A stretch of DNA of 64,000 bases from Thermoplasmata archaeon. Lineage in GTDB: Archaea; Thermoplasmatota; Penumbrarchaeia; JAEHCK01. The stretch is from positions 1 through 64,000 of the forward strand of contig JAEHCK010000010.1 in NCBI GenBank assembly GCA_020696345.1, given 5' to 3'. The notes below the pieces were generated by a model that saw only the letters and a list, made by a program, of their open reading frames with translations, did not search any database and was not told the origin of the DNA. The position numbers and the translations under genes were made by a program. Below are positions 1,855 through 30,732 of this stretch, piece by piece; the first letter of the stretch is position 1; every line of letters begins with the position of its first letter.

Positions 1855-3306
1855 CTAATAAATCCTTTTAAATTTCTTGTGCCATAAGATCGTCATCAAT
1901 AATAAACAAATAATTAATAAATTCCCTTGGAAGGCTGGCAAAAATCCTATTTTCTTGTCCTTGTCATCATCATCCTTTTTCCATCTAGATGAGTCATACG
2001 GATATTCATCATCGTCGTCAGGGTGTCCGTCATTGTCATCGTCAGTATCGATTGAGTCAGGGATTAAGTCCAAATCAAAGTCTGGGGGAGTAGATGTGCT
2101 GTCCCAAATTATAGTGCCTTCTGAAATCTCGATGGTATCATTATATCCATCATTGTCATCATCTTCGTCCATGTAATCGGGATTTGCATCATTATCGGTA
2201 TCATGGGATAAATTATATTGATAAATATAATCTCTTAAATAAAAATATACTGTATTTTCATGAATAATCGGAAATCCCAGAACGTGATAATTTCTATTTT
2301 GTGTTTCTTTTAGCTTAATATCTTCCTTTTCAAGTTTAATAAAGATTTTATGTTCTTCATTAGGTTGGAAATCAAATAATCCAATTGAACAATAATCTTT
2401 TGAAGAAATTGGAAGTCCATACAGTAATTCATCATTTCCAGCGGATATATGATCGCCGTATCTCATAACATCATTATAAATTATACGAGTAGTGTCCATT
2501 TGGTTAAATTCATCCTTTTTTAAATCATAATAGTCACTGAAAGATCCAAAATAAAAATAATCATTTATTAAAAAAACTGGAAAATGTACTTCAGTAGAAA
2601 CTAATAATGATTTATGAATTAAATTTAAGCTATTTGTAGCTAGATCATAATTATAAAGATATGTTCCATTCAATTCTTTAGACCAACCAATTAAAATTAT
2701 ATATTTTTCATTCATTATTTTTCCTTTTGGAAATGAAATTATTTCAGCATCAAATTTCGTCTCGTTACCATGATAAATTACTTTTTCTGTGGATAAAATA
2801 AAATCATACATAATGATAGAATATTCAATAACACCAGATAAATTTCTTGCCTCAAGATATATAATCTTATTATTAAAAATATCAAAATAATAAATATGTT
2901 CGGCGCTATTTTTAATTAGTTTTATTGTTTTATTTGTTTCATAATTTAATATATTTAATTGATTATATTTCCATTGATTATTTATCAATTCTGGAGAATG
3001 ATAGACGATATATTTGTCCCAAATTTTTGGATATTCATCAGGATCTCCCATGTGGTTAATATTAAATTCTTTTAGATCATCTGTCTCAATATTATATACC
3101 ATCAATTTTTCTCTTGATTCCATTATTAAATAAGTAGAATTATAACTATCGATAATTACACCAGTAAACTTTTTTGGAATAATCTTTTCTATTGGAGAAT
3201 TATTAAATGGCTCATTCTCAGCGTTAACTCCTGAAATAATCGAGCTTAATATAATTGTTATAATCAAATAAATTATTACTTTATTTATCCTTTTACCACC
3301 TACCAC
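1855..3306 (-). CDS. Secreted, C-terminally anchored protein with acidic calcium-type repeats
   Basis: 483 residues, GTG start. Residues 1-29 form a signal peptide (basic start, then a run of I and L, ending SGVNA). The middle 330 residues consist of repeated Tyr- and Ile-rich strands like a TolB/DUF5050-style beta propeller. Near residues 375-450 come DTDNDANPD, DEDDDNDG and DTDDDNDG units of the thrombospondin type 3 kind, which bind calcium, then a Lys/Asp-rich spacer, a hydrophobic helix (about 463-476) and a short basic tail. It is expected on the outer face of the membrane. The substrate or partner is unknown, and it sits alone between repeats and the Hdr operon. Confidence 0.75.
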   Translation of the reverse strand: MVGGKRINKVIIYLIITIILSSIISGVNAENEPFNNSPIEKIIPKKFTGVIIDSYNSTYLIMESREKLMVYNIETDDLKEFNINHMGDPDEYPKIWDKYIVYHSPELINNQWKYNQLNILNYETNKTIKLIKNSAEHIYYFDIFNNKIIYLEARNLSGVIEYSIIMYDFILSTEKVIYHGNETKFDAEIISFPKGKIMNEKYIILIGWSKELNGTYLYNYDLATNSLNLIHKSLLVSTEVHFPVFLINDYFYFGSFSDYYDLKKDEFNQMDTTRIIYNDVMRYGDHISAGNDELLYGLPISSKDYCSIGLFDFQPNEEHKIFIKLEKEDIKLKETQNRNYHVLGFPIIHENTVYFYLRDYIYQYNLSHDTDNDANPDYMDEDDDNDGYNDTIEISEGTIIWDSTSTPPDFDLDLIPDSIDTDDDNDGHPDDDDEYPYDSSRWKKDDDDKDKKIGFLPAFQGNLLIICLLLMTILWHKKFKRIY

Positions 3307-3502: not shown

Positions 3503-6500
3503 TTAAACAAAACCCAAACCACTTGCCACCACCACAAGATCAAAACTAGCTATACCATCGCCCGTTTCTATCTCAAATGTCTTATCATCCAGTTCTGTAA
3601 TTTTCATCTCATCTTGTGTTACGATCTTGACATTATCACTTACATCATCCACCGTGACCAGCTCATCTTTTAGGTACTCAAAACCCTCCGGGAATGCGGA
3701 TAACTCAGTAGAATTGGTAAATAATGTCGGTTTAATATCCGGGTAATTACTTTTGATATATCTGACCAACCTGAGTAAATATTCCAATTCCAGGTTGCTC
3801 ATTGACTTCTGGGTTTCATTGAGCATTTCTTTATCGGATAGATTGATGAACGCAATGTTTTGCGGTAGCTCACCATCGTACGGGCGTAATATCCGCCCGT
3901 CAACGTCAAAGACGCCACCGGGTTTGATCATGTATTCCAGTTCCATCGGGGTCAGAACATTCATCGAGTTCTTGTATAATTCCTTCAATTCGTTATCGTC
4001 GCAAAACCGCCCTTCCTCCAAAGCAGGATATTGCAGCACCTCTTTTGCATCGATCTCGAAATGTTCATCCAACATCGAATAATCGATCGCATCCTGCGGG
4101 CACACCGACTGACACACGCCGCAGCCGATGCACATGCGGCAGCTCAGGCATCGACTTGCTTCAAAGACCGCCTCTTGCCGTGTTAAAGGCAGCTCCACCT
4201 CGGCAAACGATGTGATCCTTTTAACCGCATCCAAAAGCTTCGATGGCTTTCGTGAGCGTTTTTCCTCCGGCAGATCCTCCAGGTAGTTCTTTTTCAAGCG
4301 CAGTAATTCCAGTTCGGTTGTTCGCCCCTCGCCGCTGATCCTACTCCCCTTCCTGGCCTCGAACAAGTCCGGATCATCCAAATCATCCGGGGCACCGCCG
4401 AGATATCTGTCTATTGCACCGGCGGCAGCCTTACCGTCTCTGATCGCACCGATCACGGTCCCGGGACCTCGCAGTGCATCGCCACCGGCGAACACGCCGT
4501 CCACATTTGTTTCCAACGTTCTATTATCAACCACAAATGTCGAACGGTTGGTCAATTCAAGATCGATATCATCATCCACGGCCAAGAATCCCAGGTCCGG
4601 TTCCTGGCCAACAGCCACGAGTATTGTATCAACATCTATTGTAAACTCCGAGCCGGGAACACTCACCGGCCTGCGCCGACCCGATCCATCCGGTTCACCC
4701 AGCTCCGTGCGCTGGCACTCAATGGCTTTCACAATACCCGAGCCGCCATCCGCATGTTCACCATCACCAATAATACTTTTTGGCGCAACCAGATACTGGA
4801 TGATTATCCCCTCTTGGATGCATTGCTCCAGTTCCTCGTCGTCTGCTGGCATCTCGTTCTTGGTCCTGCGGTATAGAATATATACATTCTCAGCACCCAG
4901 TCGTCTTGCGGTTCGTGCAGTGTCCATGGCGGTATTACCGCCGCCTATGACCGCCACGCTTTGACCTGGCGAAATCGTTTTACCCCGAGCACCTAAATTA
5001 TATTCTCTGAGAAATTCCAGGCCGGAGACCACACCTTCGAGATGTTCGCCGCCGATACCCAATCTAATGTTCTTTTGCGCACCCACCGCGATAAAGATCG
5101 CTTTATACCCCTGTGCTTTCAGGTCTGAAATGGTCAGGCCCGGACCGATGGGTGTATTTAATTTCAGCTCAACACCCAGGTCGATGATCGCCTGAACCTC
5201 TCGCTGCACCGCGTCGGCCGGCAGCCGGTAATCGGGTATACCCATTCGCAGCATACCACCTGGTACGGACTGGCCCTCGAATATTGTAACCGGGTAACCC
5301 AGGAGTGCCAGGTCGTGCGCCGCCGCCAGCCCGGCCGGACCAGAGCCGATTATCGCCACCTTATTTGATGGCTCACGGTTTATGATCAACTTTGGTTTGG
5401 AAATAATTGGCCTTGCCGCTTGTTCGGATAGTTCATAATACTTCTCGACCGCGAACCGTTTGAGCTTTCTGATCTCCAGAGGCTCGTCAAAATAACCGCG
5501 TGCACATGTGAATTCACATGCATGGTCGCACACCTTACCGCATATATCTGGCATTGGATTCGACCGCTGTATTACCTCCACGGCGCCGTCGATATCGCCA
5601 TCAGCCAGTTTACCTATATACCCGCGCGCATCCATCAAGATGGGGCAGCTGCTCTGGCAGTTTGGTATGGACTTTGAGATCGCGAATTTTGTTCTGTCGG
5701 AGTTGGGCATGGGCCAATAAATAGCATGTTCATTGACCATACCATGGGCGTCGAAGTTCAGGATCTTTACCGGACATGCGGATGAGCATTCTCCGCAGTT
5801 ATCACATTTGCCCTCGTCCACATATGTGGCGATCTTGTGCACTTGAACGCGAATACCTCTCTCTCCGGTACTGACATCTTCCAGCCTGGCATTACGGATG
5901 ACCGTGATATTTTCATGGTCATAGATCCGGTCGATCAATTCGGAATATTCATTCATATGTTTGGAATGGTCGGTTTGGTCAAAGAAATTCTTAGTTAAGA
6001 TAGGAGGTTCGGGTAAGAACGAGGTATGGGCCGAAATAACGCAAACCTTATTGCCAGCCTCTGCAAGCGCCACTGCTTTTCGTAAACCGGAAATTGTAGT
6101 GCCCACCAACACATGATCGAATCTATTATTTCCGGTGATCTGATTCTGACCTGGCTGGGTTTCTTCCACTTTTATCTTATTGGGGAGCTCATTTTTTACT
6201 TGTAAAGGTCCATTGCCAGCCTCGCCGACCTCCGCACCTCCCTTGCTATCAACTGCTATCTCCTGAACCGGGCTCAGGCTGTACATCGGCGAACTATTTT
6301 CCTGCCCAGCACCCCTTACTACACCGCTCCCGATCAGATCATGAATGGCTCGCAATATCTTGTGTGGCGGCACAGCCATTTTTTTGGCGAGCATCTTGAC
6401 AGAGCTGTTTGAATCCTTGAGTAAAAGCAAGATCTTAGTGCACACGAACTCATCACTGGCGATCTCGCTTAAGAGCCGGTTTTGCTCATGCTCGGTGAAC

Positions 6501-8911
6501 TGCTCGTGATATTTATTACCGTCAGCTGAAAACTGCATTATTTTCTCGGCGATCACCCGCAGTCGTTTGCCTTTTGCAGAGTCAAGCGCTGCCTGGAGAT
6601 CGATCGCCAAAAACTTATCATTTGCCACGGGCCCGAGTATGTCAAGTTCGGTGACGAACTCTTTAGCCACCCGGGCAAACTTTGCACCCTCTGCAGCACT
6701 CAACCATTCCAGCCGCACACGCTCTGGGTTGATATCGGCAAGTTCCAGTAATTTCTTCGTTAATAAAACCTTTTTTTCTGCGAAATAATTTCCCGTTATA
6801 TAATGACATGTTGGAAACTCGCAGCCGGCAACCATAACACCCGCAGCACCGCGGGAAAACGCATGCAGTATGAACGCCGGGTCCACGCGGCCCGAACACA
6901 TGACCCGAATGATACGTAGATTTGCCGGATATTGTATCCTGCTCACACCCGCGTTATCCACCGCACCAAGAGCACACCAATGACAGGCAAACACCACCAC
7001 CTTGTCTTTGCATTCAACTTCACATTCACCTTTACTTTCGGTTTTATTGTTATTTGCCAATGCCATGTCGATCTGTGCCATGATCTGTTCATCCGAATAA
7101 TGAACGATATTTATTGCTTGTGTCGGGCAGCTGGCGGCACATGTGCCGCACCCCTTGCAGATAGCCTTGATCACCTCGGGCTTATTATTGATAATATTAT
7201 CAATATCAATATCAAAAGCAATATCAATTAACTCAACTGCCCCAAATGCACAGACCTCGGTGCAAATACCGCAGCCGATACACAGGTCGGAATTGATGTC
7301 GGCAACAATACCCTCGGTTTCCACATAACCTTTGTTCATCGGTATGGCTGCGCGCATTGCCGCACCCATGCTCTCTTCCAGGCATTCTCGTACACTCTTG
7401 GGCGACCGTGCAGCACCGCAGATGTAAATACCATCGGATGCAAAATCCAACGGGCGCAGTTTCACATGTGCCTCGATAAAGAACCCGTCATGGTTGGTGG
7501 ACACCTTAAGCAATCCTTTGAGCTGCTCGGTTGTGGAATTACCCTTGAAACCTGTTGCCAATACAACCATGTCCACTTCGACCTTGACTTCTTCTCCCAT
7601 CAAAATATCATAGCTTTGTACTGTCAATTGCCGGTTGTTTTCGACTGTCCCCTTTGGTTGAACCACCGGTGGTGCCGAGTCAGGATACCTGAATGAGGCG
7701 GCAATCTGCCCCATGGAATCGTAATGATACTGTACATCCATACCGGTAATTGTAAGGTCGCGGTAGAACAAATATACATTAATCTCCTCGTTCAATTCTT
7801 TTACGATCTTCATATTCTTGATCGATGACAGGCAGCCAATATTACAACAACCGCACTCGGTATCCCTGGAGTTCACGCAATTGATGAATGCAACATTTTT
7901 CATCTTTGCCAATCTTGGATCGTTATTCTTCAAAAGCTCTTCAAATTGAAGCTGTGTCAACACGTTGGAATATTTTCCATAACCGAACATGCCCAACCGT
8001 TCGATCTCTTCCATGCCGGTGGCAACAATGATCGTTGACACCACACACTCGAAAATATCTTCTTCGAGATGTGGTTTATTTTCATTATATCTACCGACCA
8101 GCTTAATATTGAAATTTCCGATATATCCCTTGATATCAGCAACCTCGGTGTCCAAAAAGATCGTGATATTTTCATGTTGTTCTGCCCGGTCCAGCTTGGT
8201 CGATAAAAATTCACGGGCGACCATATCCGATGGCGCTAACTTGTGCAGCCGGTTCAACAACCCGCCCAATGAACCGGTTCGCTCCACCAAAAATATCTTG
8301 AAACCAAGGTCAGCAAGTGTAAGTGCCGCGGTTATACCTGCTATACCGCCGCCAATGACCAAACACTCTTTACCAACCGGTATTTGTATCTCCTCACCTG
8401 GCTCAAGGTATCGTGCCTTTGCCACACCCATCTGCACCAGGTCCCTGGCGACCTCGGTGGCCAGCTTCGGATCATCCTGATGCACCCATGAGCTTTGTTC
8501 ACGTATACTGACGAATTCCAGTAGAAATGGGTTCAACCCCGCTTCTTTCACGGTTGTTTTAAAGGTGGGTTCATGCGTGCGCGGGGTACAGCAGGCCACA
8601 ACCACACGGTTGAGATCATGTTCGGAAATATACTCCTTGATCTTGGTTAGGTAATCCACCGAACATATCCATTTGCCTTCCTCGGCGAATACGACGCCGT
8701 TCATGGTTCGGGCGAACTTCACCAATTCTGGTACATCTACAACACCCGCAATATTGGTGCCGCAATCGCAAATAAAGACACCGATCCGCATTTCTTCCCG
8801 ATCATTCTTATATTTATGTTTATCTTTATCGTTAGTCTTATCGTTAGGTTTATCGTTAGGCTTATCTTTATCCTGAACATCATGGCCGTTATCCATTGTG
8901 TATAGCCCCAT
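3503..8911 (-). CDS. Giant HdrA-MvhD-HdrA/GltD fusion flavoprotein (1,802 aa)
   Basis: A cytosolic multi-cofactor electron-transfer protein. Residues 41-530 are HdrA: an N-terminal CDCG segment, CCTPRTHEP, a Rossmann GGGIAGITAA at 187-196 and the cluster region CGCCNIGC near 353-360. Two ferredoxin clusters follow (CIGCGICTEVC 544-554; CKGCGTCAASC 585-595), then an MvhD domain (about 636-765, ACHWCALGA and CEFPTCHY) and a winged-helix-like spacer. From 931 a second, weaker HdrA-like Rossmann domain begins, with a cluster at 1036-1046. It is interrupted by a complete GltD/NfnB-type NAD(P)H oxidoreductase (about 1080-1570; GSGPAGLAAAHD 1189-1200, a second GGGNTAMD) and a cluster CRMCIGCGVCQSVC. 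The last 170 residues resemble the end of HdrA again. Residues 13-40 are a KPND-type repeat; Met6 (8896) or Met41 may be the real start. The start overlaps the preceding gene. Confidence 0.85.
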   Translation of the reverse strand: MGLYTMDNGHDVQDKDKPNDKPNDKTNDKDKHKYKNDREEMRIGVFICDCGTNIAGVVDVPELVKFARTMNGVVFAEEGKWICSVDYLTKIKEYISEHDLNRVVVACCTPRTHEPTFKTTVKEAGLNPFLLEFVSIREQSSWVHQDDPKLATEVARDLVQMGVAKARYLEPGEEIQIPVGKECLVIGGGIAGITAALTLADLGFKIFLVERTGSLGGLLNRLHKLAPSDMVAREFLSTKLDRAEQHENITIFLDTEVADIKGYIGNFNIKLVGRYNENKPHLEEDIFECVVSTIIVATGMEEIERLGMFGYGKYSNVLTQLQFEELLKNNDPRLAKMKNVAFINCVNSRDTECGCCNIGCLSSIKNMKIVKELNEEINVYLFYRDLTITGMDVQYHYDSMGQIAASFRYPDSAPPVVQPKGTVENNRQLTVQSYDILMGEEVKVEVDMVVLATGFKGNSTTEQLKGLLKVSTNHDGFFIEAHVKLRPLDFASDGIYICGAARSPKSVRECLEESMGAAMRAAIPMNKGYVETEGIVADINSDLCIGCGICTEVCAFGAVELIDIAFDIDIDNIINNKPEVIKAICKGCGTCAASCPTQAINIVHYSDEQIMAQIDMALANNNKTESKGECEVECKDKVVVFACHWCALGAVDNAGVSRIQYPANLRIIRVMCSGRVDPAFILHAFSRGAAGVMVAGCEFPTCHYITGNYFAEKKVLLTKKLLELADINPERVRLEWLSAAEGAKFARVAKEFVTELDILGPVANDKFLAIDLQAALDSAKGKRLRVIAEKIMQFSADGNKYHEQFTEHEQNRLLSEIASDEFVCTKILLLLKDSNSSVKMLAKKMAVPPHKILRAIHDLIGSGVVRGAGQENSSPMYSLSPVQEIAVDSKGGAEVGEAGNGPLQVKNELPNKIKVEETQPGQNQITGNNRFDHVLVGTTISGLRKAVALAEAGNKVCVISAHTSFLPEPPILTKNFFDQTDHSKHMNEYSELIDRIYDHENITVIRNARLEDVSTGERGIRVQVHKIATYVDEGKCDNCGECSSACPVKILNFDAHGMVNEHAIYWPMPNSDRTKFAISKSIPNCQSSCPILMDARGYIGKLADGDIDGAVEVIQRSNPMPDICGKVCDHACEFTCARGYFDEPLEIRKLKRFAVEKYYELSEQAARPIISKPKLIINREPSNKVAIIGSGPAGLAAAHDLALLGYPVTIFEGQSVPGGMLRMGIPDYRLPADAVQREVQAIIDLGVELKLNTPIGPGLTISDLKAQGYKAIFIAVGAQKNIRLGIGGEHLEGVVSGLEFLREYNLGARGKTISPGQSVAVIGGGNTAMDTARTARRLGAENVYILYRRTKNEMPADDEELEQCIQEGIIIQYLVAPKSIIGDGEHADGGSGIVKAIECQRTELGEPDGSGRRRPVSVPGSEFTIDVDTILVAVGQEPDLGFLAVDDDIDLELTNRSTFVVDNRTLETNVDGVFAGGDALRGPGTVIGAIRDGKAAAGAIDRYLGGAPDDLDDPDLFEARKGSRISGEGRTTELELLRLKKNYLEDLPEEKRSRKPSKLLDAVKRITSFAEVELPLTRQEAVFEASRCLSCRMCIGCGVCQSVCPQDAIDYSMLDEHFEIDAKEVLQYPALEEGRFCDDNELKELYKNSMNVLTPMELEYMIKPGGVFDVDGRILRPYDGELPQNIAFINLSDKEMLNETQKSMSNLELEYLLRLVRYIKSNYPDIKPTLFTNSTELSAFPEGFEYLKDELVTVDDVSDNVKIVTQDEMKITELDDKTFEIETGDGIASFDLVVVASGLGFV
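8820..8876. repeat. 12-bp tandem repeat coding the N-terminal linker of the fusion protein
   Basis: Imperfect copies of TTATCGTTAGGT on the plus strand encode the D-K-P-N / D-K-T-N run at residues 14-38 of the HdrA fusion. It lies between the possible starts and the conserved HdrA beginning at Met41, so it is a low-complexity linker, or even 5' leader if translation starts at Met41. Confidence 0.6.
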
Positions 8912-10376
8912 TTATTTTTTTCTGGTTTTCAAATACCTCAGAAACAGCTTTAATACTTGCCGCAATTGCCTGGGTCACCGCCTCCGAGATATCTGCAGGA
9001 CCAAGTGCGCCGCCGCAGAGAAATACACCGGGTTCATTGGATCGTAAAGGCGCCTCTAAATGGTCTTGCTCCTTGAAAAAGCCAGTTATCGGATCAAGTT
9101 CGATCTTTAGTACCTTTGATAATCGTTTATTCTTTGCACTCGGATACACGGGCACAGATAGAACTAACAGTTCAACCTCAGAAACTTCGATCTTGCCGGT
9201 ATCCAGATCTTCGTAGGTTACATGCAGGTTTTTTGACTTGGGATCCTCGTATACCTCGGCAAGCTTGCCTTTTACGTGTTTTACCCCGTTATCTTTTGCA
9301 CGCATGTAAAATTTGTAAAAATCCTTACCATACGTTTTCATGTCCTTGTAGAGAATGATCGTTTCCATATCTTTGTCATGTTCTTTGGTGATTATTGCCT
9401 GTTTATTGGCGATCATGCAGCATACTTTTGAGCAATACGGCACACCCAGTTTGGTATCACGACCCACACACTGTACCCATAGGACCGACCTTGGGATCTT
9501 TGCATCCGACGGCCGAACTATTACACCTTGTGTAGGTCCACCTGCATTGGTCAATCGTTCATATTCCAAATGTGTAATGACATTCTCGTAGATGCCAAAA
9601 CCAAAATAACCCATGGGCAGCTCCAACGTTTCCAAACCTGAAGCGACAATGATGCTGTTTACCTCGATGTCCATTAACTCATCTTTACCCCAGAGCAAGA
9701 TCGCATCCGCACCTTCCTTGCGGCACTCCACAACACATTTGGCGATCTGGCATTCACGGCACTGGATGCAGTCCACATCACAACCGCCAATACATGCGCC
9801 CTCGCCGTATTTCTTGCCATATCGGCATTCCGGCGAGATATAATATACATTTGGCACCGCCTGTGGAAATGGTATCGAGATCAATTTACGAGTCCCCCCG
9901 ATCCTTCCATCCAGCTCATCGGGCACCGTAACTGGACACACATCAATACATTTACCACAGCCTTTACATTTTTCCTCGTCCACGAACTTGGACCTTTTCA
10001 ACAATCTGATCTTGAACTTGACATTCTCTCTATTTACCCTGCGAATTTCCGTGTTGGTCAGAAGTATGATATTAGGATTTCTTTGAACATCGTACATTTT
10101 AGGCGCTTCTATACAGATCGAGCAATCATTGGTTGGAAATGTTTTGTTAAGTCTAGCCATTAACCCACCGATCGTGGGGGTTGACTCCACTAGATACACT
10201 TTAATTCCAAACTCTGCAAGGTTCAACGCGGCTTCCATACCTGCAATGCCGCCGCCCAGGATCAGCACGGCATTTGCATCTGCGTCTGTATTTTCACCTG
10301 CATCTGCATGAGCAGGTCTTGGCTCTAGATTCGTATTAATAGACTTATTGTCCACACCATCGATGTTACCAGGCAT
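8889..10376 (-). CDS. HdrA-like FAD/iron-sulfur subunit
   Basis: 495 residues, HdrA/QmoA-like. After about 36 low-complexity residues comes a Rossmann motif LILGGGIAGMEAALNLAEF and the HdrA signature around DCSICIEAPKMYDV. A ferredoxin cluster CKGCGKCIDVCPV sits near residues 137-149, followed by an unusual Cys-rich segment (CRYGKKYGEGACIGGCDVDC, then CIQCRECQIAKCVVEC) that could hold a further cluster. The end carries the HdrA FAD-binding GVFLCGGALGPADISEAV. Related proteins use FAD to split electron pairs between ferredoxin and another acceptor. It is first in a minus-strand operon with the giant fusion, whose start overlaps its stop, so the two probably form one complex. Confidence 0.85.
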   Translation of the reverse strand: MPGNIDGVDNKSINTNLEPRPAHADAGENTDADANAVLILGGGIAGMEAALNLAEFGIKVYLVESTPTIGGLMARLNKTFPTNDCSICIEAPKMYDVQRNPNIILLTNTEIRRVNRENVKFKIRLLKRSKFVDEEKCKGCGKCIDVCPVTVPDELDGRIGGTRKLISIPFPQAVPNVYYISPECRYGKKYGEGACIGGCDVDCIQCRECQIAKCVVECRKEGADAILLWGKDELMDIEVNSIIVASGLETLELPMGYFGFGIYENVITHLEYERLTNAGGPTQGVIVRPSDAKIPRSVLWVQCVGRDTKLGVPYCSKVCCMIANKQAIITKEHDKDMETIILYKDMKTYGKDFYKFYMRAKDNGVKHVKGKLAEVYEDPKSKNLHVTYEDLDTGKIEVSEVELLVLSVPVYPSAKNKRLSKVLKIELDPITGFFKEQDHLEAPLRSNEPGVFLCGGALGPADISEAVTQAIAASIKAVSEVFENQKKINGAIHNG

Positions 10377-13282: not shown

Positions 13283-14362
13283 GTGACAAATTCGAATACG
13301 TTGGTCATTGGCTGTGGCATTGCAGGGATCACATCCGCTCTTGAACTGGCAAAGATGGGATACAAAGTATACATGGTAGAAAAAAATACCAATATTGGTG
13401 GTAAGGTTGCTTCATTTTGTTGTAAAGCGTCTAGCCAGTGTAATAAATGCTCTGTATGTTTGATCACCGATAGAATGGTAGAGGTGAGGGATCATACAAA
13501 TATACAAATTATGACAGATTCAGAGGTAATCGCCATAGAGGGTAAAGGCGGGGATTTTACTGTAAAAGTAAATGGTAATGTAAATGGCAATGATCCTGAG
13601 GAGAGTTCCAAAAAAGACAATATAAAAAGTTTGTCAGTTGGTACAATTATAGTTGCTATTGGAATTGATGTATTTGAACCAAGATTAGCACCACAATATG
13701 GCTATGGAAAATACAAAAATGTTATGACCGCTCTTGAGCTGGAGAAGTTCATATATAAACACGATTCAATCAATAGACCCTCGGACGGTGCGCAGCTAAA
13801 ACGGATCGCATTCATTCAATGTGTTGGTTCGAGAAATATTCATTTTAATAAATATTGCTCGAAAGTATGCTGCATGTACGCTACTAAACTCTCGGAATGG
13901 ATACACGATCGTATTCCTGATGCGGATGTCACGATATTCTACATGGATTTTCAAACATTTGGAAAAGGTTTTATGGAACTTTATGATAGATATACAAATG
14001 AAGACTGGATCACTTTTATTAGGAGCAAGCCAGCAGAGGTTTATCAAATTGAAGATGATCTATATGTAAGATATGAGGATACTATTAAAGGCGAGATCGT
14101 TGAAGATACATTTGACATCGTCGTTCTTTCAACAGGCATTACTCCAAAAAAGGATCATAAATCCATCGCAAGGCTCTTTGGACTTGAACTAGATGTTGAT
14201 GGCTTTTTTTCATGTCAATCCTCATTGGAGACTGCAAGAACCAATATCAATGGTGTTTTTTTGGCAGGTGGCTGTCAATCGCCAAAGGATATAAGTGAAA
14301 CCATTTCTCAAGCATCACTAGCGGCTGCGGATGCGGCTTTGTTTTTGGAGAGGGCTAAATGA
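13283..14362 (+). CDS. HdrA/QmoA-like flavoprotein
   Basis: 359 residues, GTG start, with a strong GGAGG ribosome binding site 11 bases upstream. It has a Rossmann VIGCGIAGITSALELAKMG, then a Cys-rich HdrA segment CCKASSQCNKCSVC (about 47-60), AFIQCVGSRN, CSKVCCMYATK (about 195) and a C-terminal GVFLAGGCQSPKDISETISQA that binds FAD. It lacks ferredoxin clusters and is as short as QmoA (around 400 residues). It is the first of five overlapping genes ending in metF and should be a flavin subunit of a soluble electron-transfer complex. Confidence 0.85.
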   Translation: MTNSNTLVIGCGIAGITSALELAKMGYKVYMVEKNTNIGGKVASFCCKASSQCNKCSVCLITDRMVEVRDHTNIQIMTDSEVIAIEGKGGDFTVKVNGNVNGNDPEESSKKDNIKSLSVGTIIVAIGIDVFEPRLAPQYGYGKYKNVMTALELEKFIYKHDSINRPSDGAQLKRIAFIQCVGSRNIHFNKYCSKVCCMYATKLSEWIHDRIPDADVTIFYMDFQTFGKGFMELYDRYTNEDWITFIRSKPAEVYQIEDDLYVRYEDTIKGEIVEDTFDIVVLSTGITPKKDHKSIARLFGLELDVDGFFSCQSSLETARTNINGVFLAGGCQSPKDISETISQASLAAADAALFLERAK

Positions 14363-15660
14363 ATAAAAACGGTCAGGACGACAATAGAACTTCCAAAATA
14401 TTTAACCCTGATGTTTTGGTACTGGGTGGTGGTTTGGCGGGTCTACAAACAGCCATCGATCTAGCGAATCCTGGAAGCCATGTTACAATTATTGAACGAA
14501 CCTCCAATCTTGGCGGACATGTAAATCAACTGTTCAGTCTTTATAATAGTGCCATAGATCCAAGAACCTTGATCTCGGAAAAACTCAAAGACCTGGAGAA
14601 AAATAATGATATCGAAGTGATAACCAATGCTGAACTTGTAAAATTGGATGGTTTTGCCGGTGATTTCACTGCTACGATCAAAGTTCGTTCGGATAATGAG
14701 AACATTATGAAATGTATTGGGATAGGAGCCGTAATTGTAGCCACGGGATATAAAACTAGTTTTTCTAATGTGGATTATGGCATACAAGCTTCCGAAAATA
14801 TTATTACCTTACTGCAACTGGAAGATATGTTAATAAATAATAATTTTGCCAGTATCCCTCAGGAGCAGAATATCTGTTTTTATTTGACCCAAGATGCAAC
14901 TAAGATCTCTTGTGGTTCGGTTTTAAATGATGCTATTTTTTTAAAGCATCAATTTGGATCTAATGTGTTCGTTTTTTTCAATGACATGAAGGTCTATGAT
15001 GATGGATTAGAAGAACTATATCTAAAAGCTCAAGATAACGGAGTTAGGTTCATTAGATGTTTAGATACCAATTTGGAATTCATAAAAGAGAAAGGGACGG
15101 CCATAATTCGGGTCAAAGACCAGTCTTTTAAAGACATAGGATCTATTTCCAATCTGGAAATTCCATATTCAATGCTAATTATCCCTGAAAAGATCATGCC
15201 AACAGATAGTTACAATGATCTTAGGTCCATACTTCAAATAGGTTTGGGGCCGGATAATTTTTTCCAGGTAGATAACGTGAACCTGACATCAGTGGAATCA
15301 AATCGAAGAGGCATATTTACTGTTGGCGGTTGCAGAGGGATCAGAGATATATCAGGGACCATTATGGATGCTCGGAACGCCGTATTAAAAACACTTTCAT
15401 TATTAATATCATCAAGTGATCAGAAAGATCACAACCAAAAAGCGAAGATCGACCCAGACAAATGCACACTTTGCCTAACCTGTATTCGAACATGCCCGCA
15501 TGTAGCTATCTGTATTGAACCCCAAAATAGAACTGCTAAGGTTGTTGACATTGCCTGCTATGGATGCGGTATTTGTACTGGGGAATGTCCCACAAAAGCA
15601 ATTGAATTGCAGGGGTATTCAGACGAACAAATATCTAAAGAAATAGGAGAATTAGTATGA
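14359..15660 (+). CDS. HdrA/QmoB-like flavoprotein with two [4Fe-4S] clusters
   Basis: 433 residues, start overlapping the previous stop by 4 bases (ATGA). It has a Rossmann LVLGGGLAGLQTAIDLANPG near residues 19-38, a weakly conserved middle in which the usual HdrA cysteines are mostly absent, a GIFTVGGCRGIRDISG FAD segment, and two C-terminal ferredoxin motifs CTLCLTCIRTC and CYGCGICTGEC. Together with the next gene (MvhD) it corresponds to a QmoB-type protein split into two genes. It probably passes electrons between the flavin and the MvhD iron-sulfur protein. Confidence 0.8.
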   Translation: MNKNGQDDNRTSKIFNPDVLVLGGGLAGLQTAIDLANPGSHVTIIERTSNLGGHVNQLFSLYNSAIDPRTLISEKLKDLEKNNDIEVITNAELVKLDGFAGDFTATIKVRSDNENIMKCIGIGAVIVATGYKTSFSNVDYGIQASENIITLLQLEDMLINNNFASIPQEQNICFYLTQDATKISCGSVLNDAIFLKHQFGSNVFVFFNDMKVYDDGLEELYLKAQDNGVRFIRCLDTNLEFIKEKGTAIIRVKDQSFKDIGSISNLEIPYSMLIIPEKIMPTDSYNDLRSILQIGLGPDNFFQVDNVNLTSVESNRRGIFTVGGCRGIRDISGTIMDARNAVLKTLSLLISSSDQKDHNQKAKIDPDKCTLCLTCIRTCPHVAICIEPQNRTAKVVDIACYGCGICTGECPTKAIELQGYSDEQISKEIGELV

Positions 15661-16085
15661 AATTCCAACCACAAATAATAACCTTTTACTGCGATCACTC
15701 CCTTCAGGATCACATATTCGAAGAAATGGTTGATGGAAATGTAAAGTCACAGTTACCTGGTTTAAAATTTATTCGGGTACCTTGCTCGGGAAAAATTGAG
15801 TCTCATCATATACTCAGGGCATTTGAACAAGGTGTTGATGGCGTTTGTGTATTTGCATGTCACAGCGGGTGTTGCCATTTTTTAACGGGTAACATCAGAT
15901 TAAAAAAGAGGGTTGAATATGTCAAAAGCTTGTTGGAACATATCGGCCTGGAAGCTGACAGACTTTTTTTGATCAATATTGCCTCGGTTGAAGGCGAACG
16001 TTTTAGTGAAATAACTAAGAAATTAATAACAACAATTGGAGATCTAGGGCCTAATCCACTTAAGTTAAAGGTGCGTGATAACTGA
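15657..16085 (+). CDS. mvhD: MvhD-like iron-sulfur subunit
   Basis: 142 residues, overlapping the previous gene by 4 bases (ATGA). It matches the MvhD/FlpD family (F420-non-reducing hydrogenase iron-sulfur subunit): RVPCSGKIESHHILRAFEQG, then CHSGCCHFLTGN, then INIASVEGERF. The family carries a [2Fe-2S] cluster and bridges an HdrA flavoprotein to another electron donor or acceptor. The first family cysteine region is reduced to FYCDH. Here the neighbours suggest the partner is the methylene-tetrahydropterin reductase. Confidence 0.85.
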   Translation: MKFQPQIITFYCDHSLQDHIFEEMVDGNVKSQLPGLKFIRVPCSGKIESHHILRAFEQGVDGVCVFACHSGCCHFLTGNIRLKKRVEYVKSLLEHIGLEADRLFLINIASVEGERFSEITKKLITTIGDLGPNPLKLKVRDN

Positions 16086-16789
16086 TGATAATTGCTCAGC
16101 AGAAATCTTTGGAAGAGATCAGTAATATGATCGCAGATCATGATAAAGTTTTATTAGTGGGCTGTGACACCTGTGTAGCCATCTGCCATGCCGGCGGTGA
16201 AAAAGAGGTTGGAATTCTCGCACCTGCACTGAGAATGAAAGCTAAACTGGATGGAAAGGAAATAAGCATTGAAGAGGCCAGTATTGAAAGACAATGCGAA
16301 AAAGAATTTGTTGAGGCTCTTGCTGATAAAATTGAACGAAATGATGTGGTGCTTTCACTTGCCTGCGGAGTAGGGCCGCAGACCATTGCGGAAGTATTCC
16401 CTGAAAAAATAGTATTACCCGGAGCAAACACAACTTTTCTGGGTCTCCCCGTAGAACAGGGTGTATGGGAGGAACGCTGCGGTGGATGCGGAAATTGTAT
16501 ATTGGATAAAACAGGTGGAATTTGTCCCATTGTTAGATGTTCAAAAAGTATGCTGAACGGGCCCTGCGGTGGTTCCGATAACGGCAAGTGCGAGGTAAAT
16601 AAAGAGATCGACTGCGGCTGGCAGCTCATTTATGATAGGTTAATAGCTTTGGATAGATTAGATATATTAGATGAAATAACCCCGCCAAAGGATTGGAATA
16701 CTGCACGCCACGGCGGGCCGCGAAAGATGGTGAGAGAAGATCTGATGCTTGAGGCCGATGAAGATGATGAACCGGAGGGTGGGAAATGA
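16085..16789 (+). CDS. metV: MetV-like zinc/iron-sulfur subunit of methylene-tetrahydrofolate reductase
   Basis: 234 residues. The N-terminal half carries VGCDTCVAICHAGGEKE; the C-terminal half is a cysteine-rich block CGGCGNCILDKTGGICP, then RCSKSMLNGPCGG and a late CGW. This is the MTHFR C-terminal family (PF12225) known as MetV in acetogens, where it pairs with MetF. Its last bases overlap metF. It likely carries iron-sulfur clusters and zinc and connects MetF to the Hdr/MvhD subunits. Confidence 0.85.
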   Translation: MIIAQQKSLEEISNMIADHDKVLLVGCDTCVAICHAGGEKEVGILAPALRMKAKLDGKEISIEEASIERQCEKEFVEALADKIERNDVVLSLACGVGPQTIAEVFPEKIVLPGANTTFLGLPVEQGVWEERCGGCGNCILDKTGGICPIVRCSKSMLNGPCGGSDNGKCEVNKEIDCGWQLIYDRLIALDRLDILDEITPPKDWNTARHGGPRKMVREDLMLEADEDDEPEGGK

Positions 16790-17712
16790 AGGCGGGCAGC
16801 AATCTGGAAAAAGTACTTATGGCTGGAAAATTTGCTGTCACCGGTGAGGTGGGGCCACCCAAAAGTGTTGACATTGAGATTGTGAAAAAAAAGGCACAAT
16901 ATATGTTGGGTAATGTTGATGCAGTAAACCTAACTGATAATCAAACTGCAATTGTAAGGCTTTCCAGTATAGCCGCAGGCAAGATCATGCTTGAACTTGA
17001 TCTGGAGCCGGTCATTCAGATGGTGGTACGTGACAGAAACAGAATAGCGATCCAGAGCGATATTTTAGGTGCAGCCGCCTTGGGCATAAAAAATATATTA
17101 TGTCTATCAGGCGATCACCAGTGCTTCGGCAACCACCCAACTTCAAAGAATGTGTATGATATCGATTCAATACAGTTCATCCAGGCACTAAAAAACATGC
17201 GTGATGAGAAGAAGTTCATCAATGGTGACGAGATCAAGGTTGAGCCAAGAATGTTCATTGGTGCTGCTGCAAACCCATTCGCCACCCCCTTCGATTACAG
17301 GGTCAAGCGTCTTTCTAAAAAGATCAAAGCAGGTGTGGATTTCATTCAAACACAGTGCATCTATGACATGGAAAGATTTGAAAAATGGATGGCTGAGGCA
17401 AGAAAACTTGGATTGCCCGAACAAGTGTATATCTTAGGCGGAGTTACTCCTCTCAAATCAGCAAGAGCTGCAAAATTCATTAATAATAATGTTTCCGGAA
17501 TAACTATCCCTAAGGAGATAATAGACCGTTTATCAAAGTACGATGACCCTGATGAACAGAAAGCCGAGGGTATCAACCAAGCCGTTGAAACCATAGAACA
17601 TCTACAGTCTATCGAGGGTATTTCCGGCGTCCATATTATGGCCATTGCATGGGAGAGCAAGGTACCGGAAATTGTTGAGCGTGCCGGGCTATTGCCGAGA
17701 CCCGAGATTTGA
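16786..17712 (+). CDS. metF: Methylene-tetrahydrofolate/methanopterin reductase, MetF type
   Basis: 308 residues, a TIM-barrel MetF protein beginning ATGAAGGCGGG within the end of metV. Features include the N-terminal VTGEVGPPKSVD, NLTDNQTA near 45, LCLSGDH near 105, a substrate/FAD segment FIQTQCIYDMERFEKW near 185-200 and LGGVTPLKS near 215. It reduces methylene-tetrahydropterin to the methyl form in the methyl branch of the Wood-Ljungdahl pathway. A bacterial-type MetFV in an archaeon stands in for the F420-dependent Mer. The fifth gene of the operon; a T-poor, A-rich gap follows. Confidence 0.88.
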   Translation: MKAGSNLEKVLMAGKFAVTGEVGPPKSVDIEIVKKKAQYMLGNVDAVNLTDNQTAIVRLSSIAAGKIMLELDLEPVIQMVVRDRNRIAIQSDILGAAALGIKNILCLSGDHQCFGNHPTSKNVYDIDSIQFIQALKNMRDEKKFINGDEIKVEPRMFIGAAANPFATPFDYRVKRLSKKIKAGVDFIQTQCIYDMERFEKWMAEARKLGLPEQVYILGGVTPLKSARAAKFINNNVSGITIPKEIIDRLSKYDDPDEQKAEGINQAVETIEHLQSIEGISGVHIMAIAWESKVPEIVERAGLLPRPEI

Positions 17713-18972: not shown

Positions 18973-21780
18973 TTGGACGAGACTGACAAGAAAATCAAGG
19001 AACTTGAAGCCGAATTAGAGAGTTATATTAAAAAAGAAATGGAAGATTTGTTAGAATCAAAGACACTTAGTAAAAAATATGTTCTAAAGGAATTATTTAA
19101 AAGCAGTATGAAATGGATATCAGGTAAACTTCCAATTGATTTATATGAAATATTTGAGGAGCGGAAAAAACAATATGAAGAAAAAATGCAAAAGATTGTG
19201 AACACTATTTATTTAAAAAATATAGAGAAAATGCAAAGAAAGATCGATAAAAAAACAGGTAGAATTTATAAAAAAACTAAAAAAATTGATAAAAAAACTG
19301 ATGAAATTTTAGAAAGAGTTAAGAAAATTCCAATAAAGGGTGAAGGTGAACAATATTCGGTGTCAAAATCGAAGCCCCTCATCTTCATCCCCCACCCGTA
19401 CCCCGAGGCCCCCAACTTCACCGGCCGTGTGGCCGAAAAACAGATGCTCACCGACTGGCTGCTGCATGATCCCGAGCACCCATTACTGTCAATGGTCGCC
19501 ATCGGCGGCATGGGGAAGAGCGCGCTGGCGTGGCGGTGGCTGCAGGAAGAGGTGTTGGGGAAAGATAATCAGCTAGATGGGGTGGTGTGGTGGAGCTTTT
19601 ACGAGTCAAAGGCCGATTTCAGGGCCTTCCTGAACGAATTGGGAGACGGGGTATTCAAGGAAGACAGAGAGCACTACAAATCCCTAGCTGAGAGAGAGAA
19701 GCTGGATTATACTTTCAATTACTTCTCAAACAACAACTATTTGCTGATTTTTGACGGATTTGAGAGGACTTTGCGAGCATATATGGGTATATCCGCTTGC
19801 TATATTGGTGATGATTGCAAACTAGAAGATAGAGAAAGACACAGACAATGCGTTGATTCGAATCTTGCATGGTTTCTACGAGCATTAACTGCGATCAACT
19901 GCAATTCTAAAACACTACTTACCACCCGTTTGCATCCTTTGGATTTAGAAAGTTTTTTAGGAGTTAAAAAAGTAGTACTTGAAAAAATGAATCCCATGGA
20001 TGCTGTAGATTTTTTCCAAGCACAAGGTGTAAATGGTACAAGAGCAGAGATAGAAACAGCTTGTGAAAAGTATAATTTTTTACCTCTTTGCCTGCGATTG
20101 TTATCAGGGATGATTATCACACATCCAAAATATCGAAAAGACAAGGATATAAAATTAGCAGAGAATATTCCTGATTTGGATTTAACTAAAGTCGATGATA
20201 ACTTGCAAGACGCTATTAAATTTCAACACATTCTTCAATATTCATATGATGAATTAATGCCAGAAAATCAACAATTGATGTCAAATATTGCAGCATTCAG
20301 ATCTCCCATGGAATTTACGACTCTACGAGAAATACTTGCCCAAGATATCAATGTCAATGAATTTAGAGAGAAATTAGAGTGTTTTAAAAAACGGGGACTA
20401 CTCCAATTTAATGAAAGAACCGATAGTTATGATTTACACCCTGTTGTGGGAAGATATTGCTATGCTCGATTAATTGAACCTAAAAAAATACATGGAATAA
20501 TTACGAAATACTTAGAGGAAAAGGTAAACAAACAATTTGGACTTCGCATTCCCTTTAAATATCAGATACTTATGGACCCAGGACCTATGAAGATAGAAAA
20601 AATAGAAGATTTACAGCCAGTAATCGAATTATACTATCATTCTATTGGTTCAGAAAAGTATGAGGAGGCTTTCCTAATTCTTTATGATAGACTCCAGTCA
20701 CCTCTTTATTATGGCTTCGGTGCTTTTCATGAATTTTCCGAACTGCTGTTGGCATTTTTCGTTGATGGAATTGATAATCCACCTGATTTATGTGATGAGT
20801 ATGTAAGTTGGATTCTCAATTCTCTTGCAAACTCTTTCTCTCATTCTGGTCAGCCCCAGAAAGCATTACCTGTTTTCAAGCAAGCTATTAGAATTGCCGA
20901 AATAGTAAGAAAATGGGGAGATGTTGCAATTGGTTTAGGTAATCTTGCAAAAATGGCACAGGTTCCCATTGGAAATCTAGAATCCGCTGAATCTAATTTA
21001 CAGAAAAGAATTGTGATTGCAGGTAAAAATAACGACGAAATAAGCGTGGCTATGGCTAATTTAGAACTTGGAAGAATTTCTGCATACTTGGGGCGATTTG
21101 ATGAATCTATAAAAAAAATTTCAAAAGCACAAGTAGTACTTGATTCCTATGGTCCATTAAAAACAAATTCTGTTTCCCTTATTAGGGCTTATAAGTCAAA
21201 TTATGCTCTCCTAATGAACAATCCCCGGGACGGATTACGGTTCGCCCAGGAAGCCCTAGTTCACGCAAAAGAATGGGAGAAAGAATTTGCTAAACAAAAT
21301 ATTCTACAAGCTGGTGTGGCTAATTTAATACAATGTAATTTGCTCATCGGAGCCTCCTATATTGCAATGAAAGATGCTGCGAAAGTAGAAGCACCACTTC
21401 AGTTTGCCATCACCAAATGCCGCAAAATCAACATGGTCGACTACGAAGCCCCAATCCTACTCGAATTGGCAAAACTCCGTCACCTCCAGCAAAAAGACGA
21501 CGAAAGTCTGAATTTGGCCACCGAAGCCCTCGAGATCGCCAACCGCTGCGGCTACATCCTCCAGCAAGCCGACATCGAACAATTCCTCGGCGAGTATTAC
21601 AAGGATCAAGGTGATATGAAGAAAGCCAGGAAATATTTTGAAGACTGCATCGAGCACTGCACCCACTGCTGGAAGTACAACGAAAAGACCAAAGATTTCG
21701 ATTATGTCAAGAAGGACGAGAAGTGGTGGTACAAGCCGAGATATGAGATGGCAGTGAGGTTGTTGGAGGAATTACAATGA
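18973..21780 (+). CDS. STAND/NB-ARC NTPase with TPR repeats, coiled-coil N-terminus (array gene 1)
   Basis: 935 residues, TTG start with an AGGTGAGG ribosome binding site 6 bases ahead. Residues 1-125 are a charged, Lys/Glu-rich helical or coiled-coil region without an enzyme motif. The shared core begins with FIPHPYPEAPNFTGR (138-152), then Walker A AIGGMGKSALAWRW (176-189), WWSFYE (206-211) and Walker B YLLIFDGFER (256-265). An RNBS-B-like LLTTRLHP follows near 318, a GLPL-like LPLCLRLLSG, and DLHPVV at the place of the MHD motif (near 490). The C-terminal 350 residues are TPR-like helical pairs. Such proteins sense a ligand with the repeats, oligomerise through the NTPase and activate the N-terminal part. 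This member has no visible enzyme and may be an adaptor or structural partner. It overlaps gene 2 by 4 bases. Confidence 0.85.
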   Translation: MDETDKKIKELEAELESYIKKEMEDLLESKTLSKKYVLKELFKSSMKWISGKLPIDLYEIFEERKKQYEEKMQKIVNTIYLKNIEKMQRKIDKKTGRIYKKTKKIDKKTDEILERVKKIPIKGEGEQYSVSKSKPLIFIPHPYPEAPNFTGRVAEKQMLTDWLLHDPEHPLLSMVAIGGMGKSALAWRWLQEEVLGKDNQLDGVVWWSFYESKADFRAFLNELGDGVFKEDREHYKSLAEREKLDYTFNYFSNNNYLLIFDGFERTLRAYMGISACYIGDDCKLEDRERHRQCVDSNLAWFLRALTAINCNSKTLLTTRLHPLDLESFLGVKKVVLEKMNPMDAVDFFQAQGVNGTRAEIETACEKYNFLPLCLRLLSGMIITHPKYRKDKDIKLAENIPDLDLTKVDDNLQDAIKFQHILQYSYDELMPENQQLMSNIAAFRSPMEFTTLREILAQDINVNEFREKLECFKKRGLLQFNERTDSYDLHPVVGRYCYARLIEPKKIHGIITKYLEEKVNKQFGLRIPFKYQILMDPGPMKIEKIEDLQPVIELYYHSIGSEKYEEAFLILYDRLQSPLYYGFGAFHEFSELLLAFFVDGIDNPPDLCDEYVSWILNSLANSFSHSGQPQKALPVFKQAIRIAEIVRKWGDVAIGLGNLAKMAQVPIGNLESAESNLQKRIVIAGKNNDEISVAMANLELGRISAYLGRFDESIKKISKAQVVLDSYGPLKTNSVSLIRAYKSNYALLMNNPRDGLRFAQEALVHAKEWEKEFAKQNILQAGVANLIQCNLLIGASYIAMKDAAKVEAPLQFAITKCRKINMVDYEAPILLELAKLRHLQQKDDESLNLATEALEIANRCGYILQQADIEQFLGEYYKDQGDMKKARKYFEDCIEHCTHCWKYNEKTKDFDYVKKDEKWWYKPRYEMAVRLLEELQ

Positions 21781-24700: not shown

Positions 24701-24950
24701 CGAAATCGCCAACCGATGCGGCTATGTCCTCCAACAAGCCGATATCCATCTATTCCTCGCCCACTACTACAAAGATCTTGACCACCTCGCCAAAGCCAAA
24801 GAGCACGCCGAATTCGCCAAGCTGCGGTCACACCAAATGATCGATGTGGAGACGGGGGATTATATTACGAAACTAGAGGAAACGGAATATAAGTACAAGC
24901 CGTGTTATGATAAGGCGGTGAAGTTGTTGAAAGAGTTGGAGGAGAAGTAA
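21777..24950 (+). CDS. STAND/NB-ARC NTPase with PD-(D/E)XK nuclease N-terminus (array gene 2)
   Basis: 1,057 residues, start ATG inside the ATGA overlap with gene 1. Residues 45-175 look like a restriction-endonuclease fold: a basic helix, then VEVDIMGDYGRDFFIMESKWW, in which D85 and E98-x-K100 fit the PD-(D/E)XK catalytic pattern. The shared core follows: FIPHPYPIQEKFTGR (218-233), Walker A GGMGKSA (258-264), WWSFYEEKANF, Walker B FLIIFDGIER, LLMTTRVTP, IPLCLRILAG and an MHD-position MHPEV. The TPR region is the most divergent of the six and holds an in-frame insert rich in D-S-R (24615-24668). Predicted to cleave DNA when the sensor is triggered. The next gene starts on its stop codon. Confidence 0.85.
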   Translation: MTKKNQTKSFSLPSDEKILNAVNLKELTIYYQKLLEIDTLPKGKTKQKLLKKRGKKIEKIIARIIEIYNWKNVELNHIKDGVEVDIMGDYGRDFFIMESKWWKEPIQSGVPLRLSGMIPLYPEAKGMVISQKGLTDNALTVISTLMVQNRIIISLDRNDIEAILNEKINFNYLIDKRQSFARRERAPNKPAISKVIEQFGKEGEFNKYPIPGIKKSHIFIPHPYPIQEKFTGRIAMRTKLTKWLTLDKHPVFIIRAIGGMGKSALSWIWFKHDVFGESLPGFEEETAESECCRLDEDRKPVGAIWWSFYEEKANFTLFLQNTGKKIFANDKDYNELSDRDKLDRIYDFFHSNPFLIIFDGIERALRSYKEFSPSYKKQKSTIERRDRECIDPNLEKFLERMAAEGGLSKLLMTTRVTPLILDGLGGVKEEVLERMEKEEAVNFFRKYDVKNIRSEIEGLCKGVNYIPLCLRILAGALSTNPKYNIDVTKLSEDVDLAKIAKQKHDKNKINHILEFSERFISEKNEQLKDLMCLISAFRTKVPYNALKVVTEDEELEDLSENLNGLIDRGLLFYDPILVSYEMHPEVKDYYYDIIENKVEIHQKLRKYFASVPEPEKIETIDDLEPVIELYHHTVKAGMHKEALILFYDKLHDHFHYKFGAYLLTIELLTEYVEQFEYIEDIKYSELFEDLTRAFSIIGKLRDSLKWSLRAIDICEKSKDKQRLAEILIYLAWSQIALGDFEQALNSLDRSYNMSQKSGMRYFSGLALQDKARILMYKGMTKKVIDLFKQASDIFNKITKNPNKDYRKGRIEWEPDKVERYAQRRLFFENLRMAELALNLGNKEKALENGKMAFEKMKNMELFQRDEVRMNWIIGSSHITYAIKCSSNESRSHVKEAEKYLETGYKYIIKKNSESKERICKGALRDCRSINLVELEAAILLETAKLRHLQARSPDSRPATRDSRLKESFTLVSEAFEIANRCGYVLQQADIHLFLAHYYKDLDHLAKAKEHAEFAKLRSHQMIDVETGDYITKLEETEYKYKPCYDKAVKLLKELEEK
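24615..24668. repeat. In-frame repeat insert in array gene 2
   Basis: Repeated GACTCTCGACC / GACTCGTGACTCTCGG steps add about 18 residues (ARSPDSRPATRDSRL...) between LRHLQ and the AFEIANRCGY helix. Array genes 1, 3 and 4 have only a few residues (QKDDES-like) here. Gene 6 has a shorter, visibly related string (ATCTCATGACCCTCGACTTG) at 36312-36338. Confidence 0.6.
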
Positions 24951-27853: not shown

Positions 27854-27855
27854 AA

Positions 27856-30723: not shown

Positions 30724-30732
30724 GGATATTAG

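What the first reader, a model, noticed from the sequence alone, without database searches (positions are those of the whole stretch)
3503..8911. 1,802-residue flavoprotein with a GltD/NfnB-like module nested inside a second HdrA-like domain
The protein contains HdrA, two ferredoxin clusters and MvhD. It then has an HdrA-like Rossmann start (from 931) with a cluster, a complete NAD(P)H-dependent GltD-like oxidoreductase, another cluster, and a C-terminal piece that reads like the missing end of HdrA (GVFDVDGRILRPYDGELPQN ... DLVVVASGLGF). This suggests the GltD module is inserted in a degenerate HdrA, giving one polypeptide that could couple NAD(P)H, ferredoxin and a third carrier.
Basis: partly seen in the sequence, partly recalled or inferred. 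Interest (0 to 1): 0.72.

Follow-up and report, generated by a model that had tools for sequence, protein, structure and literature searches.

The report
NAD(P)H arm fused to HdrA-MvhD
A very large archaeal electron-transfer protein that joins three enzymes which other microbes make separately; one of them is an NAD(P)H-using module sitting inside a second HdrA copy that appears to have lost its own flavin, so it is an unusual rearrangement of a known kind of energy-coupling enzyme.

Summary
Residues 39-765 are HdrA with its N-terminal and C-terminal ferredoxin domains, lacking the inserted ferredoxin and Cys197, followed by MvhD. Residues 928-1802 are a second HdrA whose inserted ferredoxin domain is split, between HdrA residues 291 and 292, by a complete GltD/NfnB module. 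The nesting is already known: HdrL (2009), ANME-1 HdrA9-11 (2022), 'type III HdrA' (2025). What is unusual is the chain and the state of the outer HdrA: FAD motif, catalytic Lys (K409→R), proximal-cluster cysteines and C-terminal FAD segment are gone, ferredoxin clusters kept. About 14 of 58 ANME-1-class genomes encode the degenerate HdrA[GltD] as a separate gene behind MvhD-HTH, often in the order HdrA6 | HdrA | MvhD-HTH | HdrA[GltD], under purifying selection. The window protein fuses the last three. Best reading: flavin-less HdrA[GltD] is an NAD(P)H input arm feeding MvhD of a heterodimeric, probably bifurcating HdrA pair whose ferredoxin site is on the neighbouring 495-aa subunit. New variant of a known kind.

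The parts
3503..8911 (-). whole gene: 1802-aa fusion HdrA(N)-MvhD-HTH-degenerate HdrA[GltD]
8378..8794 (-). HdrA N-terminal cluster domain (aa 40-178), C48/C50/C83 present
   Evidence: alignment to 5ODC HdrA
7313..8374 (-). HdrA FAD domain 1 (aa 180-533): GGGIAG at 187, E324 (=E356), K365 (=K409); no inserted ferredoxin domain, no Cys197
7082..7306 (-). C-terminal two-cluster ferredoxin of HdrA (aa 536-610)
6617..7012 (-). MvhD/FlpD domain (aa 634-765)
   Evidence: Pfam FlpD 1.3e-48; 5odc_D 1.2e-39
6242..6616 (-). helical domain with a possible HTH (aa 766-890), conserved after MvhD in the ANME-1 cassettes
   Evidence: HTH matches below Pfam cut-offs
6131..6241 (-). linker at the former gene boundary (aa 891-927)
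   Evidence: comparison with the separate ANME-1 genes; no ATG codon in it, one in-frame GTG
5846..6130 (-). degenerate HdrA FAD-domain N part (aa 928-1022), FAD motif VGTTISG at 936, no Cys197
5675..5845 (-). first half of the split inserted ferredoxin domain (aa 1023-1079), one [4Fe-4S] motif
   Evidence: aligned to 5ODC 232-291
4394..5674 (-). GltD/NfnB-like NAD(P)H oxidoreductase insert (aa 1080-1506), FAD motif at 1189, NAD(P) motif at 1323
4037..4174 (-). second half of the split inserted ferredoxin domain (aa 1580-1625)
3506..4036 (-). degenerate HdrA FAD-domain C part (aa 1626-1802): E1659 kept, K409 replaced by R1714, proximal-cluster cysteines lost, truncated
8889..10376 (-). partner gene: 495-aa HdrA6-like protein, no N-terminal or C-terminal ferredoxin domain, with inserted ferredoxin, Cys197 equivalent (C88), E273, K325; overlaps the fusion gene by 23 bp

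Best explanation
The 1802-aa protein is a three-gene fusion of the cassette HdrA(N-type) + MvhD-HTH + degenerate HdrA[GltD], working with the adjacent 495-aa HdrA6-like protein. The two HdrAs probably form an asymmetric pair: the fusion supplies three cysteines of the N-terminal cluster, the C-terminal ferredoxin and MvhD; the 495-aa protein supplies the fourth cysteine (Cys197 equivalent) and the ferredoxin-reducing inserted domain. The third HdrA no longer bifurcates and probably binds no flavin; it is kept as a frame holding the two clusters of the split ferredoxin domain next to GltD. Proposed flow: NAD(P)H -> GltD FAD -> Fe-S clusters of GltD and the split ferredoxin -> MvhD [2Fe-2S] -> C-terminal ferredoxin -> FAD of the HdrA pair, which splits electrons between ferredoxin (via the 495-aa subunit) and an acceptor encoded elsewhere; it could run backwards to make NAD(P)H. 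Shown: domain order, residue losses and retentions, the ANME-1 cassette and selection on it. Inferred: flavin loss, dimerisation, electron path, bifurcation, acceptor.
For: Separate genes for the same parts in an ANME-1 (Methanophagales) MAG: HdrA6 (41% to the 495-aa protein), HdrA (44%), MvhD-HTH (46%), degenerate HdrA[GltD] (40%); the degenerate form occurs in about 14 of 58 genomes of that class, in ORFs of 841-864 aa where complete, never fused. The MvhD-HTH gene directly precedes it in every locus fetched, while the HdrA upstream varies (HdrA6+HdrA pair, or one full-length HdrA; in L183 itself a GltD-containing HdrA), as expected if MvhD-HTH + HdrA[GltD] is an exchangeable input unit. MvhD is the known docking port for hydrogenase or formate dehydrogenase (PMC6085437). 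Cys197/N-domain complementarity between the 495-aa protein and the fusion is the pattern read as heterodimer in ANME HdrAs (PMC9012536). Both HdrA flavin sites of the pair keep FAD motif, E356 and K409; the third has lost FAD motif, K409 and cluster cysteines. Window and ANME-1 degenerate modules group against 15 non-degenerate ones (100/99); median dN/dS 0.16 and 0.20 on the degenerate HdrA halves, 0.12 on GltD. The GltD-to-second-cluster model resembles NfnABC/StnABC chains (Z 44.7, rmsd 2.0, 474 residues). HdrA in the HdrCBA-MvhD-MetVF cluster of a Moorella thermoacetica strain contains the same insert, and the complex purified from that species reduces benzyl viologen with NADH (review PMC5861303).
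Against: No biochemistry on any degenerate form. The window row is a long branch (1.8), so its grouping may be partly convergence of degenerate rows; the GltD-only, MvhD and first-HdrA trees do not give a supported window+ANME-1 clade. ANME-1 forms keep GxGxxG, so flavin loss is less sure there. No HdrB/HdrD-type (CCG) match on this contig, so the acceptor is unknown. The electron path to MvhD rests on gene order and fusion; cluster distances were not measured. The fusion is seen in one MAG only.
Confidence: 0.55

Rival explanations
1. The nested HdrA still binds FAD and bifurcates, as proposed for type III HdrA: NADH -> GltD -> split ferredoxin -> FAD of that same HdrA.
For: The nested form and the split ferredoxin are shared with type III HdrA; E356 is kept (E1659); the authors report K409 and E356 in all their type III sequences (PMC12054007).
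Against: Here GxGxxG became VGTTISG, K409 is R1714, all proximal-cluster cysteines and Cys197 are gone, and the C-terminal part of the FAD domain is missing.
Confidence: 0.1
2. The GltD flavin is itself the bifurcating site, as NfnB is in Nfn, and the HdrA parts are relays and docking frames.
For: Closest solved structures to residues 1080-1604 are NfnABC/StnABC chains and NfnI; Chadwick et al. raise two bifurcation sites for HdrA-NfnB (PMC9012536).
Against: Both HdrAs of the predicted pair keep the residues linked to HdrA bifurcation; no NfnA/PyrK-like partner was seen among the genes next to it.
Confidence: 0.2
3. The complex belongs with the MetV-MetF cluster 2.9 kb away: NADH-driven methylene-tetrahydropterin reduction as in Moorella, with the parts rearranged.
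For: Window 13283-17712 encodes HdrA, HdrA, MvhD, a MetV-like protein and MetF; the last two are 58% and 63% identical to those next to the GltD-containing HdrA of a Moorella thermoacetica strain. The genome lacks McrA, so heterodisulfide is an unlikely acceptor.
Against: Divergent strands, two unrelated genes in between, and the MetVF cluster has its own HdrA pair and MvhD. ANME-1 are reported to have no MetF in HdrA clusters (PMC9012536). Compatible with the best explanation; it only names an acceptor.
Confidence: 0.2
4. Degenerating or artefactual fusion without function.
For: Single MAG (91% complete, 6% contamination); long branch; no orthologue among 389 genomes of the phylum.
Against: 1802 codons without a stop, all ferredoxin cysteines kept, similar GC3 across modules, and the unfused counterpart is under purifying selection.
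Confidence: 0.06

Closest known systems
HdrL (HdrA/glutamate-synthase fusion), Desulfobacterium autotrophicum, PMC2702500
   Same: HdrA-GltD fusion with predicted NADH site, colocalised with mvhD
   Different: MvhD and GltD-HdrA not reported as one chain in this order; flavin loss not described
HdrA9/10/11 of ANME-1 (PMC9012536) and type III HdrA, classes A9, A9-TRX-C, A10 (PMC12054007)
   Same: NfnB/GltD insert inside the inserted ferredoxin domain; ANME-1 carries the unfused cassette; class A9-TRX-C may be the degenerate form (the name suggests it; not verified)
   Different: Papers report FAD residues (2022) and K409/E356 (2025) retained; here K409 and the FAD motif are lost and the module is fused behind HdrA-MvhD
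HdrA2 / type Ia HdrA (HdrA-MvhD fusion)
   Same: residues 39-765 have HdrA, C-terminal ferredoxin and MvhD in this order
   Different: no inserted ferredoxin domain, no Cys197; continues into HTH and HdrA[GltD]
MetFV-HdrABC-MvhD of Moorella
   Same: GltD-containing HdrA beside a second HdrA and MvhD
   Different: order HdrA[GltD]-HdrA with separate MvhD; non-degenerate; HdrBC and MetVF in the operon
1884-aa HdrA[GltD]-HdrA-MvhD of another genome of the same phylum (L201)
   Same: all three modules in one chain
   Different: opposite order and a more complete outer HdrA

Membership tests
HdrL / type III HdrA | GltD/NfnB module inserted within the inserted ferredoxin domain of HdrA | tested here: met
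   junction between HdrA 291 and 292
HdrL / type III HdrA | K409 of the host HdrA conserved (reported for all type III sequences, PMC12054007) | tested here: not met
   R1714; ANME-1 counterparts lack it too
HdrL / type III HdrA | E356 of the host HdrA conserved | tested here: met
   E1659
HdrL / type III HdrA | intact FAD site in the host HdrA | tested here: not met
   VGTTISG and missing C-terminal segment
tandem (heterodimeric) HdrA, HdrA5/6 type | one copy with N-domain and no Cys197, the other with Cys197 and no N-domain | tested here: met
   fusion residues 39-615 versus 495-aa protein
tandem (heterodimeric) HdrA, HdrA5/6 type | physical heterodimer | not testable with these tools
   needs co-purification or structure
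type Ia HdrA (HdrA2) | MvhD fused behind the C-terminal ferredoxin of HdrA | tested here: met
type Ia HdrA (HdrA2) | complete HdrA including inserted ferredoxin and full-length model score | tested here: not met
   inserted ferredoxin absent; NF040770 807.6 bits against cut-off 1100
MetFV-HdrABC-MvhD complex | HdrB/HdrC and MetVF in the same operon | tested here: not met
   no CCG match on this contig; MetVF is on the other strand
Nfn transhydrogenase | bifurcating FAD in the NfnB-like module | not testable with these tools
   fold match only

The most novel reading that the evidence does not exclude
An HdrA fold that has given up its flavin and bifurcation and is kept under selection as a wiring frame joining an NAD(P)H dehydrogenase to MvhD: a recurring plug-in input arm for HdrA complexes, separate in ANME-1 and covalently fused here.
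Probability: 0.45. Interest if true: 0.55.

Novelty: new variant of a known kind. Interest (0 to 1): 0.42.

Why it matters
HdrA-based bifurcation sets the energy budget of many anaerobes, and how different electron donors plug into it is an open question; for ANME-1 the return of NAD(P)H electrons to catabolism is named as open (PMC9012536). The fusion supplies covalent evidence for which parts belong together (MvhD with the GltD-bearing HdrA) and predicts that this HdrA is a wire, not a bifurcating site. The GltD-containing HdrA in Moorella's MetVF cluster offers a workable organism in which NADH use can be tested.

Tried and rejected
Packing of 931-1060 with 1640-1802: AlphaFold2 of residues 634-1802 gave mean pLDDT 71.3, pTM 0.57, but no coordinates or PAE are returned and both structure comparisons were filled by the GltD fold; no solved HdrA chain was in the 50 rows shown, which says nothing either way. 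HTH-like segment folded alone: pLDDT 44, not used. GltD-only tree: placement of the window unresolved. MvhD tree: no window+ANME-1 clade. A scan of viral contigs with the ANME-1 protein found nothing. McrA absent from the genome, so methanogenic heterodisulfide was set aside as acceptor. Taxonomic identity: archaeal genes in the window, species unnamed; Cbf5 comparison with named genomes not decisive. The supplement of PMC12054007 could not be opened to check class A9-TRX-C.

Full report
What is there. The interval holds one 1802-codon gene on the minus strand, overlapping by 23 bp the end of an upstream 495-aa HdrA-like gene (8889-10376). Pfam, NCBIfam and PDB comparisons give: HdrA 39-615 without its inserted ferredoxin domain (273 continues almost directly at HdrA 313), MvhD 634-765, a helical segment with sub-threshold HTH matches, then a second HdrA interrupted by GltD. 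The HdrA of PDB 5ODC aligns to 1022-1081 (HdrA 232-291) and 1593-1612 (HdrA 292-311), with no HdrA residue missing in between: GltD lies between the two clusters of the inserted ferredoxin domain (the short second piece is weak on its own but recurs in the family alignments).

State of the three HdrA copies. Against 5ODC (numbering): the 495-aa protein keeps the FAD motif, Cys197 (C88), E356 (E273), K409 (K325) and an inserted ferredoxin domain, and lacks the N-terminal and C-terminal ferredoxin domains. The first HdrA of the fusion keeps N-domain cysteines, FAD motif, E324 and K365, and lacks Cys197 and the inserted ferredoxin. These two complement each other in the way described for tandem HdrAs (PMC9012536). 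The nested HdrA keeps E1659 and the ferredoxin cysteines but has VGTTISG for GxGxxG, R1714 for K409, none of the proximal-cluster cysteines, no Cys197, and ends before the last FAD-binding segment. DNA just past the stop was read by eye only; no remnant of the missing HdrA end was noticed.

Relatives. Non-degenerate HdrA[GltD] proteins occur in the same genome (1260 and 909 aa), in other genomes of the phylum (1457, 1657, 1884 aa), and in Moorella, Thermincola, Smithella, Syntrophobacterales, Dehalococcoidia, a Clostridiales MAG and others. The 1884-aa protein already has GltD, two HdrAs and MvhD in one chain, in another order. So neither the nesting nor a three-module chain is unique.

The ANME-1 cassette. 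A Methanophagales MAG encodes the parts of the window as neighbours in the same order: HdrA6-like, HdrA, MvhD-HTH, degenerate HdrA[GltD]. In the class of that MAG 28 of 58 genomes have some match to the degenerate tail and about 14 have the degenerate protein itself, in ORFs of 841-864 aa where complete. Eleven further loci: MvhD-HTH directly precedes it in all; upstream of that the HdrA6+HdrA pair is seen complete in five (plus the index MAG), cut by contig ends in some, and replaced by full-length or GltD-containing HdrAs in others. Degenerate proteins share the losses of Cys197, the proximal-cluster cysteines, K409 and the C-terminal FAD segment; ANME-1 members keep GxGxxG. On a tree of the whole module, window and eight ANME-1 proteins are one side of a branch (100/99) against 15 others, with the caution that the window row is long. 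Trees of GltD alone, of MvhD and of the first HdrA do not give that clade with support. Median dN/dS among ANME-1 members is 0.16 and 0.20 on the degenerate HdrA halves, 0.12 on GltD. No orthologue of the window's tail was found among 389 genomes of its own phylum; the ANME-1 tail found only weak matches there, at ordinary HdrA level, not examined one by one.

Mechanism. MvhD is where hydrogenase or formate dehydrogenase plugs into HdrABC (PMC6085437). The pairing of MvhD-HTH with HdrA[GltD], separate or fused, suggests that NAD(P)H enters by the same port. This is inference from gene order and fusion. NADH versus NADPH is left open. A Moorella thermoacetica strain (DSM 21394) carries HdrC-HdrB-HdrA(1487 aa, with GltD)-MvhD-MetV-MetF; the complex purified from this species oxidises NADH with benzyl viologen and has two FAD in HdrA (PMC5861303). 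Whether the purified strain's HdrA has the insert was not checked here. The acceptor in the window's organism is unknown: McrA is absent and no HdrB/D-type match lies on this contig.

Structure. AlphaFold2 on residues 634-1802 (20 sequences): pLDDT 71.3, pTM 0.57; GltD and the second cluster match NfnABC/StnABC chains at Z about 44.

Verdict. Observation confirmed; interpretation partly right; a new arrangement of a known kind, with an apparently flavin-free HdrA as its most interesting feature.

Noticed in passing
window 13283-17712 (+): Split HdrA pair (359 and 433 aa), MvhD, MetV-like (234 aa) and MetF (308 aa); the last two 58% and 63% identical to those of the Moorella NADH-linked cluster.
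   Followed up: partly
L199 (Moorella thermoacetica DSM 21394), L083 (M. stamsii): The HdrA of the HdrCBA-MvhD-MetVF cluster is a GltD-containing (type III) HdrA fused to a second HdrA, although PMC12054007 says type III has not been studied biochemically.
   Followed up: partly
window 46192-47922 (-): 576-aa protein with a bacterial-type DnaA ATPase domain (Pfam 6e-68; TIGR00362 344.4 bits) beside archaeal Memo and ribosomal S2 genes; PF00308 matches in 8 of 9 genomes of the class, several in ORFs of 1200-1400 aa.
   Followed up: partly
G000, contigs C39, C166, C51, C73 and others: Very many HdrA-like genes in a genome without McrA; C39 alone has at least six within 34 kb.
   Followed up: partly
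window 18973-36620 (+): Six consecutive ORFs of 935-1057 aa; the three scanned have TPR repeats, the last also DUF4062.
   Followed up: no
L201:4895-10546 (+): 1884-aa HdrA[GltD]-HdrA-MvhD fusion in another genome of the same phylum.
   Followed up: partly
window 1855-3306 (-): Predicted exported protein with an Asp-rich repeat stretch and a C-terminal hydrophobic segment; no Pfam or NCBIfam match.
   Followed up: no
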